Shown: in pieces, positions 7,413 through 62,021 of the stretch | Numbering within the stretch: position 1 is the first letter of the stretch | Layout of the letters: each line of letters begins with the position of its first letter | Virus record (IMG/VR): IMGVR_UViG_3300031823_000001 | Span: 97,741-161,740 of that record | DNA from: a virus | Length of the DNA stretch: 64,000 nt | Strand: one strand, 5' to 3' | Made by a program: the position numbers and the translations under genes | Notes under the pieces: generated by a model | The model's database searches: none | What the model saw: the letters and a program-made list of their open reading frames with translations, nothing else | What the model was told of the DNA's origin: nothing

Positions 7413-8957
7413 GTGGCCAACTACCGTCTTTTCCCTTCGACGAGCGGCCCGGCGCTTACCAGCTACACGGGCAAGTTCATGGCGGGGGTCGCCTTCCAGG
7501 TCACCGAGGGCGCTACCTGGCTGTCTGGTTTCTGGTGGTGGGTTCCCGCCGGGGGCGATACCGCCGCCCAGGAGTTCTGCCTCTGGCAGCTCACCGCCGG
7601 GCTCGCGGGCATCGTCGTGCCCGCGACCACGGTCACGTCCGGGACGCTGACCGCCGGGGCGTGGAACTACGTCGCGCTCGCTTCCCCGGTGGGGCTTACG
7701 CCGGGAATCCCCTACCTGGCTGAGACCGCGTACACCGCCGCCCACGGCTTCCCTGAGACGCACGGCCAGTTCGGCAGCGGGGACCCGTACTCCGCAGGAA
7801 TCACCAACGGCCCCCTGTCGGCCTACTCGGACGCGTCCGGGTCGAACCCGGCGCCGTCCGGCTGGGTGACCCAGGGGTCTTTCGGCACCGCCTACAGCGT
7901 CCCTACCTCCGGTATCCCCAACCTGGGGTCGGACAGCAGCAGCAACTTCTGGCTGGACGTCCAGGTCACCGACACGCTCCCCGCAGGAGGAAGCTACCGG
8001 CTGTGGCCGTCGCTGCCGCTGCCGCAGGGGATGATCCAGGACTCGGCCGCGAACTTCACCCTGGCGACCGAGTTCGTCCTCTCCGGGTCGTGCTCGCTGG
8101 ACAACATCTGGTTCTACTCCCCCTCCGGCGCGCCTAACCTGCCGACAGAATGCGGCATCCTCGGCCAGACCTCCCAGGCGCTGGTCAGCGGCACGCACGT
8201 CACCTCTCCCTCCTGGTCGGGGGCGGCCGGGTCGGGGTGGGTAGCGCACGCCTACACCGGGGTCACGCTGCCCGCCGGGGCCTACCGGGTCGCGGTGGCC
8301 AACTCCGACGGCACCGCCGGGGCATGGAACGACGCGACCGTCGATTACTTCCTCACCGGGGCCGGGTCGGCGGGACTCACCGCAGGGCCGTTGTCGGCCC
8401 CGCCGAACAGCACGGCGGGCAGCCCCGGCCAGGGGTCCTACAACTCCGGTGCAACCCTGGCGTGGCCCGGCACGTTCGACACCGGCCACGCGCCGTCTTA
8501 CTGGGTGGACGTCGAGGTCACACCTGGAGCCACCATCGACTCCGGGTCAGCCGCCCTGGCCGCGCTGCCGTCACTCGCGGCAGCCGGCACCCGGACAGTC
8601 CTCGCTTCAGCTCACGTCACCGCCGCCTCTTCGCTTTCGGCGCCCGGGACAAGAGCGGTTCCCGCTGCCGCCGCGCTGTCGGCACCGGGGGCGCTGTCGG
8701 CTCACGGCACGCTGTCGGTCCGCGCCGCCGCCTCGGCGGCTGCGCTGGCGCGGCTCTCGGCGGCAGGGGCGGTTCCGGTCACCGCTGGTGCGGCACTGGG
8801 TGCTTCCGCCGTATTGACGTGCTCTTATCTTCCCGCACGAATCGTGATCGCCGCGAATATCATGTTCCCAGATAACCAGTCTGGGATATACGGGGCCAGT
8901 GAGGCTGAGACGACCGTAATAGTCCCTGGCGTGACAGACGGGATTTACAGCTCATGA
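7413..8957 (+). CDS. Fibre-like protein with two DUF4082-type beta-sandwich repeats
   Basis: 514 residues, GTG start four bases after the previous stop. Residues about 1-190 and 195-375 are two related units. Each has F-x-V-x-x-G...L-x-G-F-W-W/Y near the start, a W-x-x-V/A turn, then AYTAAHGFPET or VANSDGTAGAW and a final N/S-FWLDV/SYWVDV strand, the pattern of DUF4082 carbohydrate-binding-like domains. Residues about 380-470 are an Ala/Ser repeat (SAPGTRAV, SAAGAVPV), perhaps an elongated stalk. The last 45 residues are coded with lower GC. A receptor- or wall-binding fibre is likely. The stop overlaps the next start (ATGA). Confidence 0.6.
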   Translation: MANYRLFPSTSGPALTSYTGKFMAGVAFQVTEGATWLSGFWWWVPAGGDTAAQEFCLWQLTAGLAGIVVPATTVTSGTLTAGAWNYVALASPVGLTPGIPYLAETAYTAAHGFPETHGQFGSGDPYSAGITNGPLSAYSDASGSNPAPSGWVTQGSFGTAYSVPTSGIPNLGSDSSSNFWLDVQVTDTLPAGGSYRLWPSLPLPQGMIQDSAANFTLATEFVLSGSCSLDNIWFYSPSGAPNLPTECGILGQTSQALVSGTHVTSPSWSGAAGSGWVAHAYTGVTLPAGAYRVAVANSDGTAGAWNDATVDYFLTGAGSAGLTAGPLSAPPNSTAGSPGQGSYNSGATLAWPGTFDTGHAPSYWVDVEVTPGATIDSGSAALAALPSLAAAGTRTVLASAHVTAASSLSAPGTRAVPAAAALSAPGALSAHGTLSVRAAASAAALARLSAAGAVPVTAGAALGASAVLTCSYLPARIVIAANIMFPDNQSGIYGASEAETTVIVPGVTDGIYSS

Positions 8958-22500: not shown

Positions 22501-23469
22501 GTGCCGAATTATTCAAAGGGCACCAAGAAGGCGGAGGAAGTCGCCGAGGAGAACCGTTCCTCGGGCTTCTACCGGGTCAAGACGATGATCATGAAGGCCG
22601 GCGAAGGGCCGTGGTATCTCCGGCTCCTCACCGACCTGGACGAGATGACGTCGGCCGACACCCACATGTTCTGCGATACCAAGCCCAAGCCTCCGGAGTT
22701 CAAGGGCGACAACTGGCCGAAGGCCATGCCGGCGGTCTGCCGGAACGACCGGATGTTCCGCGTCCTCGACGCGGACGGGCGGCCCACCGACCAGTTCGAA
22801 GAGGACGAGGAGGGCGGCGGCACCTACGGCGACTGCTACATCCACGACCGTGACCGGGGCAAGGTCCGCGAGGGCAAGTTCAAGCGGGACAAGTCCGTTC
22901 CCGACTGGCAGACCTACAGTCTGGCCGTCGTCCGCGAGCCCATCCTCGACCCGGTGAGCAAGCGCCCGATCGGCTACCGGGACGCCGAAGACGAGTTCAA
23001 GATGCCCGACGGGTCGATCAAGAAGATCCCCCGGCTGGTCATCGTCTCCCAGAAGCACCGCAACTTCTGGAGCGGCGTCGAGGCCGCGCTGTTCGAGGGC
23101 GGCCCTCTCGGCGCCCGCGACATCAGGATCACCCGCAAGGAGAACGACTACAGCTTCGGCGTGTCGTCCCCCGATCCGAAGCTGTACCCGGGGTCGGACG
23201 CGTGGAAGCGCTACACCGAGGCCATCGAGCTGGTCGGGTTCGACCTGGACGAGCACATCCTCGAACTGGCTAGCAAGGACTGGTACGACCGCTGGTTCGT
23301 CGAGGGCGCGGTCCCGAAGGACGGCTACGCCCGGTCCGAGGACACCACCGAGGAAGCCTCCGACGCCGTCGCCGGGACAGAGGCAGCCGAGAAGATCGAC
23401 CCGGAGAGGGTGGACGTCTTCGCCGAGCAGCTCAGGTCGGCCCGCTCGACGGCCGCCGCCTCAGCCTGA
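22501..23469 (+). CDS. Probable single-stranded-DNA-binding-type replication protein
   Basis: 322 residues, GTG start two bases after the J-like gene. The first 230 residues contain WYLRLLTD, a Cys/His set (HMFCDTKPKPPEF, AVCRND, YGDCYIHDRD) and the FWSGVEAALFEG stretch. The C-terminal 45 residues are acidic and Ala/Glu-rich, as in phage ssDNA-binding proteins that recruit partners through acidic tails. Similar proteins sit before polymerase genes in large actinophages. Assignment is by layout and context; no diagnostic motif proves it. Confidence 0.45.
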   Translation: MPNYSKGTKKAEEVAEENRSSGFYRVKTMIMKAGEGPWYLRLLTDLDEMTSADTHMFCDTKPKPPEFKGDNWPKAMPAVCRNDRMFRVLDADGRPTDQFEEDEEGGGTYGDCYIHDRDRGKVREGKFKRDKSVPDWQTYSLAVVREPILDPVSKRPIGYRDAEDEFKMPDGSIKKIPRLVIVSQKHRNFWSGVEAALFEGGPLGARDIRITRKENDYSFGVSSPDPKLYPGSDAWKRYTEAIELVGFDLDEHILELASKDWYDRWFVEGAVPKDGYARSEDTTEEASDAVAGTEAAEKIDPERVDVFAEQLRSARSTAAASA

Positions 23470-32463: not shown

Positions 32464-32854
32464 CGTCTTGGATTTGTACGACCACGAGGTAGAGGAGATC
32501 CTCCAGCTCCAGTTGAAGCTGAACGACAAGGCGCGGTACGGCCGCCACAACTACACCGACTTCGAGCGGGAGATCCGCGAGCGGTTCGCCGGGATCGGCT
32601 TTACCGTCGAGGTGAGCTGGTACGGCTTCTCCGTGGGCGGCCAGCCGCAGGACGGCGCGATGCCCGAGGTCACCGTCACCGGCCGCACTGACGCGAAGCA
32701 CGTCTTCGACAAGGACCGCCAGGTGCACGAGGTCACCAACAACGTCCTCGGCATCCCCGGGGAAGAGGGCGTCATCAAGGCCGACCCGGACACCGTGAAG
32801 AACTTCCTGGACGGGAACGGAGGGCACGGCCATGGGCACGGACACTCCCACTAA
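32453..32854 (+). CDS. Hypothetical protein with His-rich tail, 133 aa
   Basis: ATG after CCGGAGGAGCAG, overlapping the previous gene by 11 bases. A helical N-terminus with FEREIRERFAGIGFTVEVSW is followed by a beta-rich part. The C-terminus ends GHGHGHGHSH, a likely metal-binding tail. The core somewhat resembles small head-completion-type proteins, but this is not established. Confidence 0.55.
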   Translation: MATDVLDLYDHEVEEILQLQLKLNDKARYGRHNYTDFEREIRERFAGIGFTVEVSWYGFSVGGQPQDGAMPEVTVTGRTDAKHVFDKDRQVHEVTNNVLGIPGEEGVIKADPDTVKNFLDGNGGHGHGHGHSH

Positions 32855-33296
32855 GTCCCTGCTGGTGCAGGAGGCCCCCTACCCCGACACCCTCCAGGAC
32901 CTGGTGGACAGCCTGGTCTACCGGCCGGGCTGGAAGTTCCGCCTGGCGCGCCTCGACCGGGGCCAGGGGAGCATCGGGCTGACCCTGGTCATCACGACGC
33001 TGGGCTATGACGCCTATCACGTGGACCGGGGCGAGACGTACCAGGTGAACCACTACATGCTGGTGCCCCCGGCCGCCTACAACCAGCCGTCGTGGCGGAT
33101 GTGGCTGTTCGAGCAGATCCTCCTCGTGGAAAAGCACGAGGCGATGGAGTTCTTCGCCTTCCTGTCCGAGAAGAAGATCACGCGCCCGTACGCGCCGAAC
33201 CACGGTTTCGGATGGGACCCGTACCTGGTGACTGAAGTCTCCTGGGACAGGGACCGCCGTACTAACTTCCGGAACGAGCTTTCCCCGGAGGCCTGA
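32832..33296 (+). CDS. Hypothetical protein, 154 aa
   Basis: It starts within the end of the His-tailed gene. Aromatic-rich alpha/beta sequence (LVYRPGWKFRLARLDRGQG, YQVNHYMLVPPAAY, RMWLFEQILLVEKHEAMEFF) with no membrane segment. Its stop overlaps the original terminase start in TGATG. Similar-sized proteins occur before terminase genes in actinophages, and a head or packaging role is possible. Confidence 0.55.
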   Translation: MGTDTPTKSLLVQEAPYPDTLQDLVDSLVYRPGWKFRLARLDRGQGSIGLTLVITTLGYDAYHVDRGETYQVNHYMLVPPAAYNQPSWRMWLFEQILLVEKHEAMEFFAFLSEKKITRPYAPNHGFGWDPYLVTEVSWDRDRRTNFRNELSPEA

Positions 33297-33352
33297 TGGC
33301 TGTCGGCCGGTGGGACGCCCCGGACACCACGGCCGCCGGGCCGCTCGACGTC
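33296..33352 (+). pseudogene. Stranded original 5' end of the large terminase gene
   Basis: The 19 codons from ATG 33296 encode MAVGRWDAPDTTAAGPLDV. The working terminase begins MAISRWQAPETQTAGPLDV at 34092. The two stretches match at 39 of 57 bases and most residues. The upstream copy runs on, in frame, into the HNH gene, so it is a remnant left when the HNH gene and a foreign terminase 5' region came in. Confidence 0.7.
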
Positions 33353-34102
33353 TATGCTCTAAGGAGGTTGCCCAGGCGCCGCGCTAACGGTCCTGGGCTG
33401 GAAGACCTGTGTGGAGGTCCCCCCATGGCTTCAGTGTACGTCTTTTCTGGTACCCCGAGCTGCACGGTGTGCGGCGTTCCGGTGCGAAGCGACAACAAGG
33501 TCGGTATCTGCGACCGGACTCCGGCATGTCGCCGTGTCCGTGCCCAGCTCGCTTATACCCCTGCTAAATGGGAGTTCTCCTGTTCTGTCTGCGACAGGGG
33601 TATCAGGGCCGACAATCACTCAGGCGTCTGCCAGAGGTCACCTGAGTGCCGGAGAGAACATGACCGTCGCCGCCATATCGCGAACCGGGCGAAGCGGCTT
33701 GCGGTCCAAAAGCAGTACCGGGACCGTCCCGGACGCGCATGCCGTTACTGGGCGTCCGGGTGCACTGAGCATGCCGTAATCGGAGGTCACGCCTGCCGGG
33801 AGCATGCCCGTCAAGAGGGCCGAGCCTTGCATGCAGCACACCGGACCAACCTCGTTAACCGGCTTGCGGAAGCACAGCACTGGATTTGCACGTGGGAGAT
33901 CTGCTGGCAGCCGATTCTTCCGGACCACCAGGTCGAGATCGATCACATCATCCCGATCTCCTCGGGCATCGTCATCCAGGATGAATGGAATCTCCAGGTC
34001 CTTCACCAGGGGTGCAACCGAGCGAAGGGGAGCAAGATCACTGGCCAGAGCGTGAGATTGGCATGGAAACACGGAATAGAGCTGATCTCAGTTGGCGATT
34101 AG
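33296..34102 (+). CDS. HNH homing-type endonuclease inserted at the terminase start
   Basis: 268 residues if translation begins at the old terminase ATG; ATG 33425 (GGAGG upstream) gives the likely native 225-residue form, MASVYVFSG. Two related zinc-ribbon units (CTVCGVPVRSDNKVGICDRT and CSVCDRGIRADNHSGVCQRS) precede a third Cys/His group and the HNH core: DHQVEIDHIIPISSG, then WNLQVLHQGCNRAKGSK. Free-standing HNH endonucleases cut alleles lacking them and spread by repair. Codon use is less GC-rich than in surrounding genes, which supports recent transfer. Confidence 0.8.
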   Translation: MAVGRWDAPDTTAAGPLDVYALRRLPRRRANGPGLEDLCGGPPMASVYVFSGTPSCTVCGVPVRSDNKVGICDRTPACRRVRAQLAYTPAKWEFSCSVCDRGIRADNHSGVCQRSPECRREHDRRRHIANRAKRLAVQKQYRDRPGRACRYWASGCTEHAVIGGHACREHARQEGRALHAAHRTNLVNRLAEAQHWICTWEICWQPILPDHQVEIDHIIPISSGIVIQDEWNLQVLHQGCNRAKGSKITGQSVRLAWKHGIELISVGD

Positions 34103-36215
34103 CCGGTGGCAGGCTCCCGAGACGCAGACTGCTGGACCGCTCGATGTCATGGAGTGGTTCAACGGGCCGCCTGTGCCCGACCCGGTTACGTTCATCACCG
34201 GAGAAGACTGGCTCGATAAGCCGCAGGCTTATCCTCGCCAGATCACGCTCATCAAGATCATCTTCTTGCGGGACGATCTCTTCACTGACTATGACAGGGC
34301 GGTCATCAGTGAGTGGCAGCGCAGATTCCAGGAGACTAATCCTGAGGCTGGCGACGGAAAGTTCAGCGCTCAGACTAAGGGTCTACAGCCTGACCTGTAC
34401 GAGAGAATGGCGTACCTCAAGAGACGCGGATACAAATGGTTCCCGGAACTCATTCTTGCTATCGGAAGGCGTGGGTCAAAGGGGTACCTGTCAGCCTTGT
34501 GCATGGCGTACGTTCTGTGGAACTACCTGTCTCTTGGTGATCCTCAATCTCATTACGGAATTGACGTCAACAAGCCACTCGCGTGCGCCGTCTTCGCGGG
34601 AAAGAAACAGCAGGCGATCGAGAACCTGTGGGGTGACCTGTACGGCGTACTGACTAGCGCGCCCTGTTTCACGCCTTACATCTCCGAGGCCCAGGTAGAG
34701 AGCCTGACCATCTACGCGCCATATGATTTCGTGCGGATGCGGAAGATGGCACAGCGAGGGATCATCTCGTCCAAGGACATGGCTACGTTTCGCATCGTTC
34801 CCCGGGAGTCCACCCCGCTAGCGCCCCGTGGCCCGGCCGGCTGCATCCTCGCGTTCGACGAAGCAGCTCACGTGAAGAATGCCGGGGTGACGAGAGAGTT
34901 CGGAGTTGTCTACGGCGCGGCCAAGCCGAGCCTTGATCAGTTCGGGACCGATGGCTTCACCGTGCTCCCGTCGTCCACCTGGGAGATGATCGGGAAGTTC
35001 TACGAGCTGTGGGAGCTGTCTCTTCAGCGTGAGCCTGCCCCGGAGCCGGGCGAGACGATGCCCGCCTACCCCACCAAGTTCATGGTCCAGATCGAGTCTT
35101 GGGCGATCTACGAGGACTGGGAGAAGGCCCATCTCCTGCCGCTGTTCCCGCCGGGATTCACGGGAGACCTGAACGAGTACGACCCGGAGAACTTGCCTCT
35201 CCTCAAGCCCCTCAAGGGCGCGATCCAGGCTTACGACGAGGAAATGGCCCGCGAGGAGAAGGCCAACCCCGATACGTTCCGGGTCGAACGGCGCTCAGAT
35301 TGGGCGACAGCCCTCGACGCCTACCTCAACACGCAGAAGATCGAGGAGATGTTCAGTCCCTGGGCGGAGCGCGACTCCCGGTTCGGCCGACCGGAGTTGT
35401 TCATGACCTCTAAGGGTCCCTTGTCGATCGACTACACGGCGCATGGCGACCCGTCAATGGTGAACTGCCGGTTCGGCTTCGCCGTCGCCCACCAGGAGCC
35501 GGGCCCGGACGGGATGAACCACGCCGTCTTCGACCTGATCCACTACTGGGACCCGGCCGATTTCGAAGATCATATCATCGACTACGACGTGCCGATCGAG
35601 TGGATCTTCGATAACGTCGTGCTGAAATTCCAGCCAGACGAACTGACCTTCGACCAATTCAACAGTGTTGCCTCGGTGCAGGCGCTCCAGAAGAAAGTGC
35701 GTGGGGCGCACCTCCAGAAGAACGTCATGGTCTACGAGCGGACCGCGACAGCCGCGTTGAACTGGAGCACGTGGGAGACGTTCAAGGCTGCCTTGAACAT
35801 GGGCCTCGTCCACGCCCCTCCCCACGGGGAGGCCAAGGACGAGCTGCGCTTCTTGCAGAAGCCAGAAGGACAGCAAAAGGTCGTGCACCCTGAGTCAGGC
35901 CCCGTCAGGACGAAGGACATCGCCGACTGCCTGGCTATCTCAACCGCCCGGCTGCTCGGCGAGCAGATGAAGGCCTATCTCGCCAAGGACCTGCGCAACC
36001 AGCGCCCGCACATGAGCCAGCCGGGCGGCCGGGACGCGCTTGACCGTTTTGCCCCCGACTCGGTAAATCCTCTCGCCGCCGAGCTTGGATCGGCCCAGGG
36101 GCGGGGAGGACTGTCGAGGGGGTTCCGGCCGGGCATGGCGCCGAGGATGGGGCGCCTCCAGCAGCAGGCCAGGTACGGGAACACCCCGGGGGCGATGCGC
36201 CGAGGGCGCTCGTGA
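34092..36215 (+). CDS. Terminase large subunit
   Basis: 707 residues from TTG 34092, which overlaps the HNH stop. The ATPase has a Walker A variant IGRRGSKGYLSA, Walker B CILAFDEAAHV and a coupling motif PSSTWEMIG. The C-terminal RNase H-like nuclease offers SIDYTAHGDPS (first Asp), WIFDNVV (second) and TKDIADCLAI (third). It cuts concatemers and powers DNA packaging into proheads. Roughly the first 800 bases use AT-ending codons much more than the rest, indicating a mosaic gene whose 5' part arrived with the HNH element. The C-terminal 60 residues are Arg/Gly-rich. Confidence 0.88.
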   Translation: MAISRWQAPETQTAGPLDVMEWFNGPPVPDPVTFITGEDWLDKPQAYPRQITLIKIIFLRDDLFTDYDRAVISEWQRRFQETNPEAGDGKFSAQTKGLQPDLYERMAYLKRRGYKWFPELILAIGRRGSKGYLSALCMAYVLWNYLSLGDPQSHYGIDVNKPLACAVFAGKKQQAIENLWGDLYGVLTSAPCFTPYISEAQVESLTIYAPYDFVRMRKMAQRGIISSKDMATFRIVPRESTPLAPRGPAGCILAFDEAAHVKNAGVTREFGVVYGAAKPSLDQFGTDGFTVLPSSTWEMIGKFYELWELSLQREPAPEPGETMPAYPTKFMVQIESWAIYEDWEKAHLLPLFPPGFTGDLNEYDPENLPLLKPLKGAIQAYDEEMAREEKANPDTFRVERRSDWATALDAYLNTQKIEEMFSPWAERDSRFGRPELFMTSKGPLSIDYTAHGDPSMVNCRFGFAVAHQEPGPDGMNHAVFDLIHYWDPADFEDHIIDYDVPIEWIFDNVVLKFQPDELTFDQFNSVASVQALQKKVRGAHLQKNVMVYERTATAALNWSTWETFKAALNMGLVHAPPHGEAKDELRFLQKPEGQQKVVHPESGPVRTKDIADCLAISTARLLGEQMKAYLAKDLRNQRPHMSQPGGRDALDRFAPDSVNPLAAELGSAQGRGGLSRGFRPGMAPRMGRLQQQARYGNTPGAMRRGRS

Positions 36216-61439: not shown

Positions 61440-62021
61440 AGATACCGACGCGCGGACGAACCGCATGATGCTCCAGCGGTAACGCCGTTCGAAGGCGAGG
61501 ATACGGGCTGCCTCGGCGGCATTGCCGTGGCCCTCGAACGGGCGGTAGGTGAAGCGCCCGCTCCTGAATGCCCAGTAATTCGACTTCACCCGGTTGTGGG
61601 CGCCGCACAGGGTGCAGAAATTCCAGAACGACGTCCGGCCGCCGAGCGACCAGGGGCGCACGTGGTCGAGGTTGAGGTCAGCGCTGCTGTGGCACCAGGG
61701 CAGGCAGCACATGTGCCTGTCGGCCGCGTAGACGATCCTCCGCAGCCGCTTGCTGACCCCCGGCCGGTACGGCTGGCCCCGGCGCCACCAGGTCCGCCAC
61801 GAGCACGGCACGAGGGCTCCAGGCGCCTCGATCGCCAGGAGGACGACCAGCGGGTAGAAGAGGCTGACCAGCAGCCCGGTGACGACCAGGCCGGCGAAGC
61901 CCAGCACGCCGCCCGGGGTGTTGTCCGCCAGCCAGCCGAAGAACGCGAACACCCCCGGCAGCGCCCAGCGGCCGAGGGTGCGCGCGGGAGCGCGGTGCCT
62001 GGCGGCACTGCTCGTCGTCAT
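61434..62021 (-). CDS. Membrane-associated HNH-type protein
   Basis: 195 residues; ATG 62021 follows GCAGGAGCGCACC. Two hydrophobic segments near residues 20-65 (LPGVFAFFGWLADNTPGG, LGFAGLVVTGLLVSLFYPLV) precede a compact HNH domain: CCLPWCHSSADLNLDHVRPW then FCTLCGAHNRVKSN, with the two CxxC-type zinc pairs of this family. The combination of a membrane anchor and a nuclease suggests cutting DNA at the cell envelope, such as incoming phage DNA; that is inference. It lies in a run of small membrane proteins. Confidence 0.65.
   Translation of the reverse strand: MTTSSAARHRAPARTLGRWALPGVFAFFGWLADNTPGGVLGFAGLVVTGLLVSLFYPLVVLLAIEAPGALVPCSWRTWWRRGQPYRPGVSKRLRRIVYAADRHMCCLPWCHSSADLNLDHVRPWSLGGRTSFWNFCTLCGAHNRVKSNYWAFRSGRFTYRPFEGHGNAAEAARILAFERRYRWSIMRFVRASVSL

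What the first reader, a model, noticed from the sequence alone, without database searches (positions are those of the whole stretch)
33296..34980. HNH element with co-transferred terminase 5' end, leaving a stranded start
MAVGRWDAPDTTAAGPLDV at 33296 and MAISRWQAPETQTAGPLDV at 34092 are two versions of the same terminase N-terminus, matching at 39 of 57 bases. The HNH gene lies between, and both it and the following ~800 bases of terminase use less GC-rich codons. The simplest story is homing from a related phage with co-conversion of the flanking terminase sequence. The working terminase now starts at TTG.
Basis: partly seen in the sequence, partly recalled or inferred. Interest (0 to 1): 0.68.

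Follow-up and report, generated by a model that had tools for sequence, protein, structure and literature searches.

The report
Endonuclease insertion that re-headed phage terminase
A DNA-cutting gene has inserted near the start of this phage's essential packaging-motor gene and appears to have brought a replacement front end from another phage, leaving the phage's own original start stranded upstream of it.

Summary
The 33296 copy is the phage's own terminase start: it is 88% (L005) and 86% (L007) identical in DNA to HNH-free relatives, sits directly behind the same 154-aa gene as in L008 and L009, and loses homology at codon 19-21. An HNH endonuclease gene follows (own start 33425; also in frame with the stranded ATG). 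Then comes a second, complete terminase N-terminus (TTG 34092). It differs from relatives mostly at synonymous sites, so it is probably the translated one.

A tract from the insert to about codon 215-272 of the terminase looks foreign. GC3 is 69-71% there, against 86-93% on both sides. Diagnostic residues switch from L009-like (15:6) to backbone-clade-like (10:42; Fisher p=6e-5). Genes on both flanks belong to the L003/L004/L007 clade. None of 8 close relatives has an HNH at the terminase or a second start. No intron or intein signal was found.

Best reading: freestanding HNH homing with a homologous crossover inside terL and a non-homologous left join. This mirrors the fungal mitochondrial atp6 hybrids, but at a 5' end. 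The cutting itself is inferred, not shown.

The parts
32832..33296 (+). 154-aa gene upstream of terL; its TGA overlaps the stranded ATG. Native backbone.
   Evidence: 75-76% aa to L004 and L007; same gene directly in front of terL in L008 and L009
33296..33352 (+). Stranded native terminase start, codons 1-19 (homology may run to 33358)
   Evidence: 88% nt to L005/L006 and 86% to L007 terL starts, homology ending at 33351-33352
33353..33424 (+). Leader between the stranded start and the HNH start, with Shine-Dalgarno GGAGGT; no homologue found in held loci
   Evidence: blastn; SD duplex -10.5 kcal/mol; fold not unusual
33425..34102 (+). HNH endonuclease gene, 225 aa; also in frame with ATG 33296 (268 aa)
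   Evidence: PF01844 E=1e-7 over the cut-off; GC3 69%
33461..33649 (+). Two Cys-rich repeats at the HNH N-terminus (CxxC...GxC...C twice), putative zinc/DNA-binding modules
   Evidence: Cysteines conserved with the paralogue in the same phage; function inferred
33896..34033 (+). HNH catalytic domain
   Evidence: Pfam match to residues 201-246 of the 268-aa frame
34092..34148 (+). Second terminase N-terminus (TTG start; overlaps the HNH stop by 11 bases)
   Evidence: 10 synonymous against 1 non-synonymous codon differences to L003; lowest non/syn ratio of the set, 0.37
34092..34907 (+). Foreign-looking 5' part of terL, codons 1-272; right boundary lies between about 34734 and 34908
   Evidence: GC3 breakpoint at codon 272; residue-pattern breakpoint at codon 215; trees
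34908..36215 (+). Remainder of terL, recipient-like
   Evidence: GC3 86%; 42:10 sites with the L003/L004/L007 clade

Best explanation
This is a freestanding (intron-less) HNH homing-type insertion into the 5' end of the large terminase gene that carried a replacement gene head. In an unsampled, less GC-rich phage related to L009, the HNH gene sat directly in front of terL and overlapped its start. In the recipient, which belonged to the L003/L004/L007 clade, the terL gene was broken near codon 19-22, most simply by this HNH. Repair on the right side used homology between the two terL genes and switched back to recipient sequence around codon 215-272. The result is the native terL head (codons 1-19), then leader and HNH, then the donor terL head fused in frame to the recipient terL body. 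Terminase is then made from TTG 34092, probably by reinitiation after the HNH stop; the native initiation site now feeds an HNH-fused frame. Shown: the two starts, the mosaic composition and phylogeny, the native identity of the stranded copy, and the absence of the insert in relatives. Inferred: cleavage by this HNH, the donor, the non-homologous left join, and TTG initiation.
For: Relatives have a single start and no HNH. The stranded copy is 88% nt to L005 and 86% to L007, with homology stopping at codon 19. GC3 steps 91-93 / 69 / 71 / 86 / 88-91% along backbone, HNH, terL head, terL body, downstream, breakpoint at codon 272 in 0 of 500 permutations. Codons 20-268 group with L009 (89/92), and holding the window with L003/L004/L007 is rejected at p 0.03-0.04; codons 276-640 reject pairing with L009 (p 0.0009 aa, 0.0002 nt). 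Upstream genes are in the L003/L004/L007 clade (100/100) and the downstream neighbours are nearest to it. Diagnostic residues switch 15:6 to 10:42 (p 6e-5), with no shift in controls L004 and L007. The second N-terminus carries a protein-level constraint signature. No PF01844 HNH near terL in 50 related records: sporadic presence, as expected of a mobile gene.
Against: No homologue of the HNH with a known target was found, and no donor phage. Cleavage is untested. The L009 affinity of the head is moderate (89/92), not conclusive. Control L003 shows a weak shift of its own (p 0.03). The terL 5' end shows short low-GC3 stretches in some other relatives too (L004, L008), so part of the composition signal there could have another cause, although none of the close relatives has a 270-codon tract. 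The record is an assembled uncultured virus, and reads were not available.
Confidence: 0.72

Rival explanations
1. Passive mosaicism: the HNH plus terL head arrived by ordinary phage recombination (illegitimate on the left, homologous on the right), and the HNH was a passenger that did not make the break.
For: The sequence outcome would be the same; nothing here shows that the enzyme is active or cuts terL.
Against: It does not by itself explain why the left join falls inside the target gene with a nuclease gene exactly there. HEGs commonly lie near terminase genes and are known to co-convert flanking sequence (PMC10448857; PMC2988022).
Confidence: 0.18
2. Self-splicing intron carrying an HNH ORF: the stranded copy is exon 1 and the intron ends at codon 20-22 of the second copy, so the mature mRNA uses the native head.
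For: A U...G splice at 33358/34154 would give ...GPLDVYAWFNGPPVPD, close to the family sequence, and one at 33301/34097 would give MAISRWQAPETQ.... HNH ORFs are common in phage group I introns, and ICP1 has a spliced terminase with a HEG next to its N-terminal exon (PMC10448857).
Against: No group I or II match with permissive Rfam searches (E up to 5 and up to 10). Only about 50 bases separate the HNH stop from that 3' site, and they encode a constrained terminase N-terminus (10 synonymous: 1 non-synonymous to L003), which an intron end would do only by accident. 56 in-frame U...G pairs exist in the small region searched, so finding one that looks plausible is expected.
Confidence: 0.06
3. 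Assembly chimera: two related phages in one sample were misjoined at the stranded copy.
For: The record is from an uncultured virus, and the left junction lies at a sequence conserved between related phages.
Against: A single misjoin does not explain why composition and clade affinity return to those of the left flank after codon 215-272 and in downstream genes. The left join runs from native terL into a leader without detectable homology to terL, whereas misjoins usually happen inside shared sequence.
Confidence: 0.03
4. The HNH is a conserved packaging nuclease of the HK97 gp74 / GVE2 type that belongs with the terminase in this clade.
For: Position next to terL.
Against: None of 50 records with a related terL has a PF01844 HNH next to it. 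In Skunavirus, by contrast, the packaging-type HNH was encoded by all analysed genomes (PMC12724721).
Confidence: 0.01

Closest known systems
Mitochondrial mORF gene hybrids (atp6 of Allomyces macrogynus; atp6, atp9, cox2, nad3 of Glomus sp.), PMC3630166
   Same: An endonuclease ORF sits inside an essential gene, carries a foreign copy of one end of that gene, makes an in-frame hybrid, and leaves the native end displaced. The native end is close in DNA to relatives (91-98% there, 88% here) and the inserted end is divergent in DNA but conserved in protein.
   Different: There the 3' end (C-terminus) is replaced, in fungal mitochondria, by LAGLIDADG or GIY-YIG endonucleases. Here the 5' end is replaced, in a phage, with an HNH protein, and a longer conversion tract follows.
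Freestanding homing endonucleases of T4-like phages (seg and mob genes, intronless homing), PMC2988022
   Same: Nuclease gene outside any intron, next to an essential gene, overlapping a neighbouring ORF, with flanking co-conversion.
   Different: T4 genes are intergenic and inherited by repair through homology on both sides. Here the gene lies inside the target's coding sequence and the left join is non-homologous, leaving a duplicate start.
Aeh1 mobE insertion in nrdA (split gene; mentioned in PMC10448857, and PMC2988022)
   Same: HEG inserted into an essential phage gene, which stays functional.
   Different: There the gene becomes two pieces that both remain in use. Here the gene stays whole because the insert comes with a new head.
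HEG-associated terminase exchange in ICP1 and other phages, PMC10448857
   Same: HEGs enriched beside terminase genes and proposed to drive allele exchange.
   Different: No stranded gene end came up in the passages read; ICP1's own interrupted terminase is spliced.

Membership tests
Freestanding HNH homing endonuclease | HNH catalytic motif | tested here: met
   PF01844 over its cut-off
Freestanding HNH homing endonuclease | Not inside an intron or intein | tested here: met
   No Rfam intron; the HNH has its own stop and lies in a different frame from terL
Freestanding HNH homing endonuclease | Sporadic presence; relatives have the empty site | tested here: met
Freestanding HNH homing endonuclease | Co-conversion of flanking target sequence | tested here: met
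   Mosaic tract of about 650-820 bases on the right side; no comparable tract on the left
Freestanding HNH homing endonuclease | Specific cleavage of the insert-free allele | not testable with these tools
   Needs purified protein
mORF gene-hybrid element (Allomyces/Glomus type) | Foreign gene end carried by an endonuclease ORF, with the native end displaced | tested here: met
mORF gene-hybrid element (Allomyces/Glomus type) | Replacement of the carboxy-terminal end, in mitochondria | tested here: not met
   Here it is the amino-terminal end, in a phage: it works like one, but is not filed as a member
Group I intron with HNH ORF | Group I core | tested here: not met
   Rfam E up to 10, none
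Group I intron with HNH ORF | U at the end of the 5' exon and G at the end of the intron at an in-frame join | tested here: inconclusive
   Possible at 33358/34154 and 33301/34097, but 56 such in-frame pairs exist in the region searched
Intein | One continuous reading frame with the host gene | tested here: not met
   Stop at 34100-34102 and frame change
Packaging HNH (HK97 gp74 / GVE2 type) | Conserved beside terminase throughout the clade | tested here: not met
   0 of 50 related records

The most novel reading that the evidence does not exclude
A self-compensating phage homing element: an HNH gene that inserts inside an essential coding sequence, without intron or intein, and keeps the gene working because it carries its own copy of the gene's 5' end. 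It would be an N-terminal, viral counterpart of the fungal atp6 mORFs and a route by which phages swap terminase heads.
Probability: 0.4. Interest if true: 0.65.

Novelty: new variant of a known kind. Interest (0 to 1): 0.5.

Why it matters
It appears to preserve the trace of one homing event with both the old and the new gene end side by side. That gives a testable cut site (terL codons 19-22), a tract length, and a way in which a homing gene can enter an essential gene without splicing. It also shows that a terminase can be a chimera of two phage lineages with a displaced start, which a gene caller would misread as the start of the HNH gene.

Tried and rejected
Close search for the HNH in IMG/VR, GTDB genomes and INPHARED: no relative, or only weak matches to the HNH domain. 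Search of the 72-base leader in held loci: nothing. AlphaFold of the HNH from two sequences: pLDDT 47, not used. PDB by sequence: nothing significant. Leader RNA fold: not unusual (z -0.16). Tandem duplication within one genome rejected: the copies differ at 32% of bases, and only the first is close in DNA to the starts of HNH-free relatives. Intein, intron and packaging nuclease rejected (see rivals and membership). Two extra IMG/VR scans, with the terL head and with the 154-aa gene, gave no donor and no second case. The genes found between the backbone and terL in L003, L004, L007 and L008 have no Pfam match.

Full report
The window is positions 97741-161740 of a 161,740-base IMG/VR virus record. 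Its terminase is distantly related (30-34% aa) to those of Mycobacterium (Myrna, I3, ScoobyDoobyDoo), Rhodococcus (E3, Finch) and Gordonia phages, and closely related (73-82%) to a group of uncultured phages in IMG/VR.

Observation. The HNH ORF between them has a Pfam HNH domain. The HNH has its own ATG at 33425 behind a strong Shine-Dalgarno sequence (GGAGGT, duplex -10.5 kcal/mol), so the 225-aa form is likely the main product. Its stop overlaps the terminase TTG by 11 bases.

Which copy is native. Eight close relatives have one terminase start, MAISRWxxPDT..AGPLDV or very near it, and no HNH there. In L008 and L009 the start directly follows the same 154-aa gene that precedes the stranded copy here. 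The stranded copy is 88% identical to L005 and 86% to L007 in DNA, with homology ending at 33351-33352; the next two codons (TAT GCT) may still be native. The second copy shares less DNA with most relatives but differs from L003 by 10 synonymous codons and one non-synonymous codon; its ratio of non-synonymous to synonymous differences is the lowest of the set (0.37; relatives 0.43-0.91; stranded copy 0.74). So the first copy is read as native and displaced, and the second as a foreign allele under protein-level constraint.

The foreign tract. GC3 is 91-93% in the three genes directly upstream, 69% in the HNH, 71% in terL codons 1-272, 86% in the rest of terL and 88-91% downstream. The codon-272 breakpoint was matched by none of 500 permutations. 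Third-position identity to relatives is 50-52% over codons 20-240 and 61-63% after that; it is roughly even along the gene in the relatives. In trees, codons 20-268 put the window beside L009 (89/92), and holding it with L003/L004/L007 is rejected at p 0.03-0.04. Codons 276-640 reject a pairing with L009 (p 0.0009 aa, 0.0002 nt). The upstream genes place the window firmly in the L003/L004/L007 clade (100/100), and the genes just downstream match the same clade best. At residues where L009 differs from a unanimous L003/L004/L007, the window agrees with L009 15:6 up to codon 272 and with the clade 42:10 after (p=6e-5). The same kind of test at DNA level on L004 and L007 shows no shift, and on L003 only a weak one. 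The right breakpoint lies between about 34734 and 34908.

Mechanism. Homing with homologous repair on both sides would replace the native start rather than duplicate it. The duplicate is explained if the recipient terL was cut near codon 19-22, the right end recombined with donor terL, and the left end was joined without homology to donor DNA ahead of the HNH. That the cut was made by this HNH is inference from position and from what is known of such enzymes (PMC2988022; PMC10448857). A passive recombination event cannot be excluded.

Alternatives. No intron family was found. One U...G splice (33358/34154) would give a plausible protein, but 56 in-frame U...G pairs exist nearby, and that intron would have to end in a conserved terminase N-terminus by accident. 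The frames exclude an intein. No PF01844 HNH lies beside terL in 50 related records, which argues against a conserved packaging HNH. A single assembly misjoin does not explain the return to the same clade on the right, but reads were not available to exclude an artefact outright.

Comparison. The closest known arrangement is the fungal mitochondrial mORF hybrid, first described in Allomyces atp6 and also found in Glomus, in which an endonuclease ORF carries a foreign gene end and the native end is left displaced. Native ends there match relatives at 91-98% and inserted ends at 64-81% in DNA (PMC3630166). The present case is its 5', phage, HNH counterpart. I found no phage example in the papers searched, though the library is partial and most papers were read only in passages.

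Noticed in passing
L004:2095-2240 and L008:5001-5140: Two HNH-free relatives have a sharp low-GC3 stretch at terL codons about 13-48 (L004 54% in codons 1-48, then 98%; L008 71%, then 94%), next to the insertion site seen here. It could be a conversion footprint, recoding of a cleavage site, or an embedded signal.
   Followed up: partly
L107:3575-4207 (-), record positions 22574-23206: A paralogous HNH gene (43% aa identity, same double Cys-rich repeats) lies on the opposite strand upstream of a 759-aa gene that may be the portal.
   Followed up: partly
Record positions 8223-8345 (-) and 159333-159446 (-); the latter is window 61593-61706: Two further HNH domains over the Pfam cut-off in the same phage record.
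   Followed up: no
L061:3010-6108: The terminase of this relative is a single 1032-aa frame with an insertion of about 330 aa that looks like an intein; no HNH beside it.
   Followed up: no
L007:2941-3105: A 54-aa Cys-containing ORF (GCRCEQC) sits between the 154-aa gene and terL, and other unrelated genes occupy the same gap in L003, L004 and L010: the gap in front of terL turns over often.
   Followed up: partly
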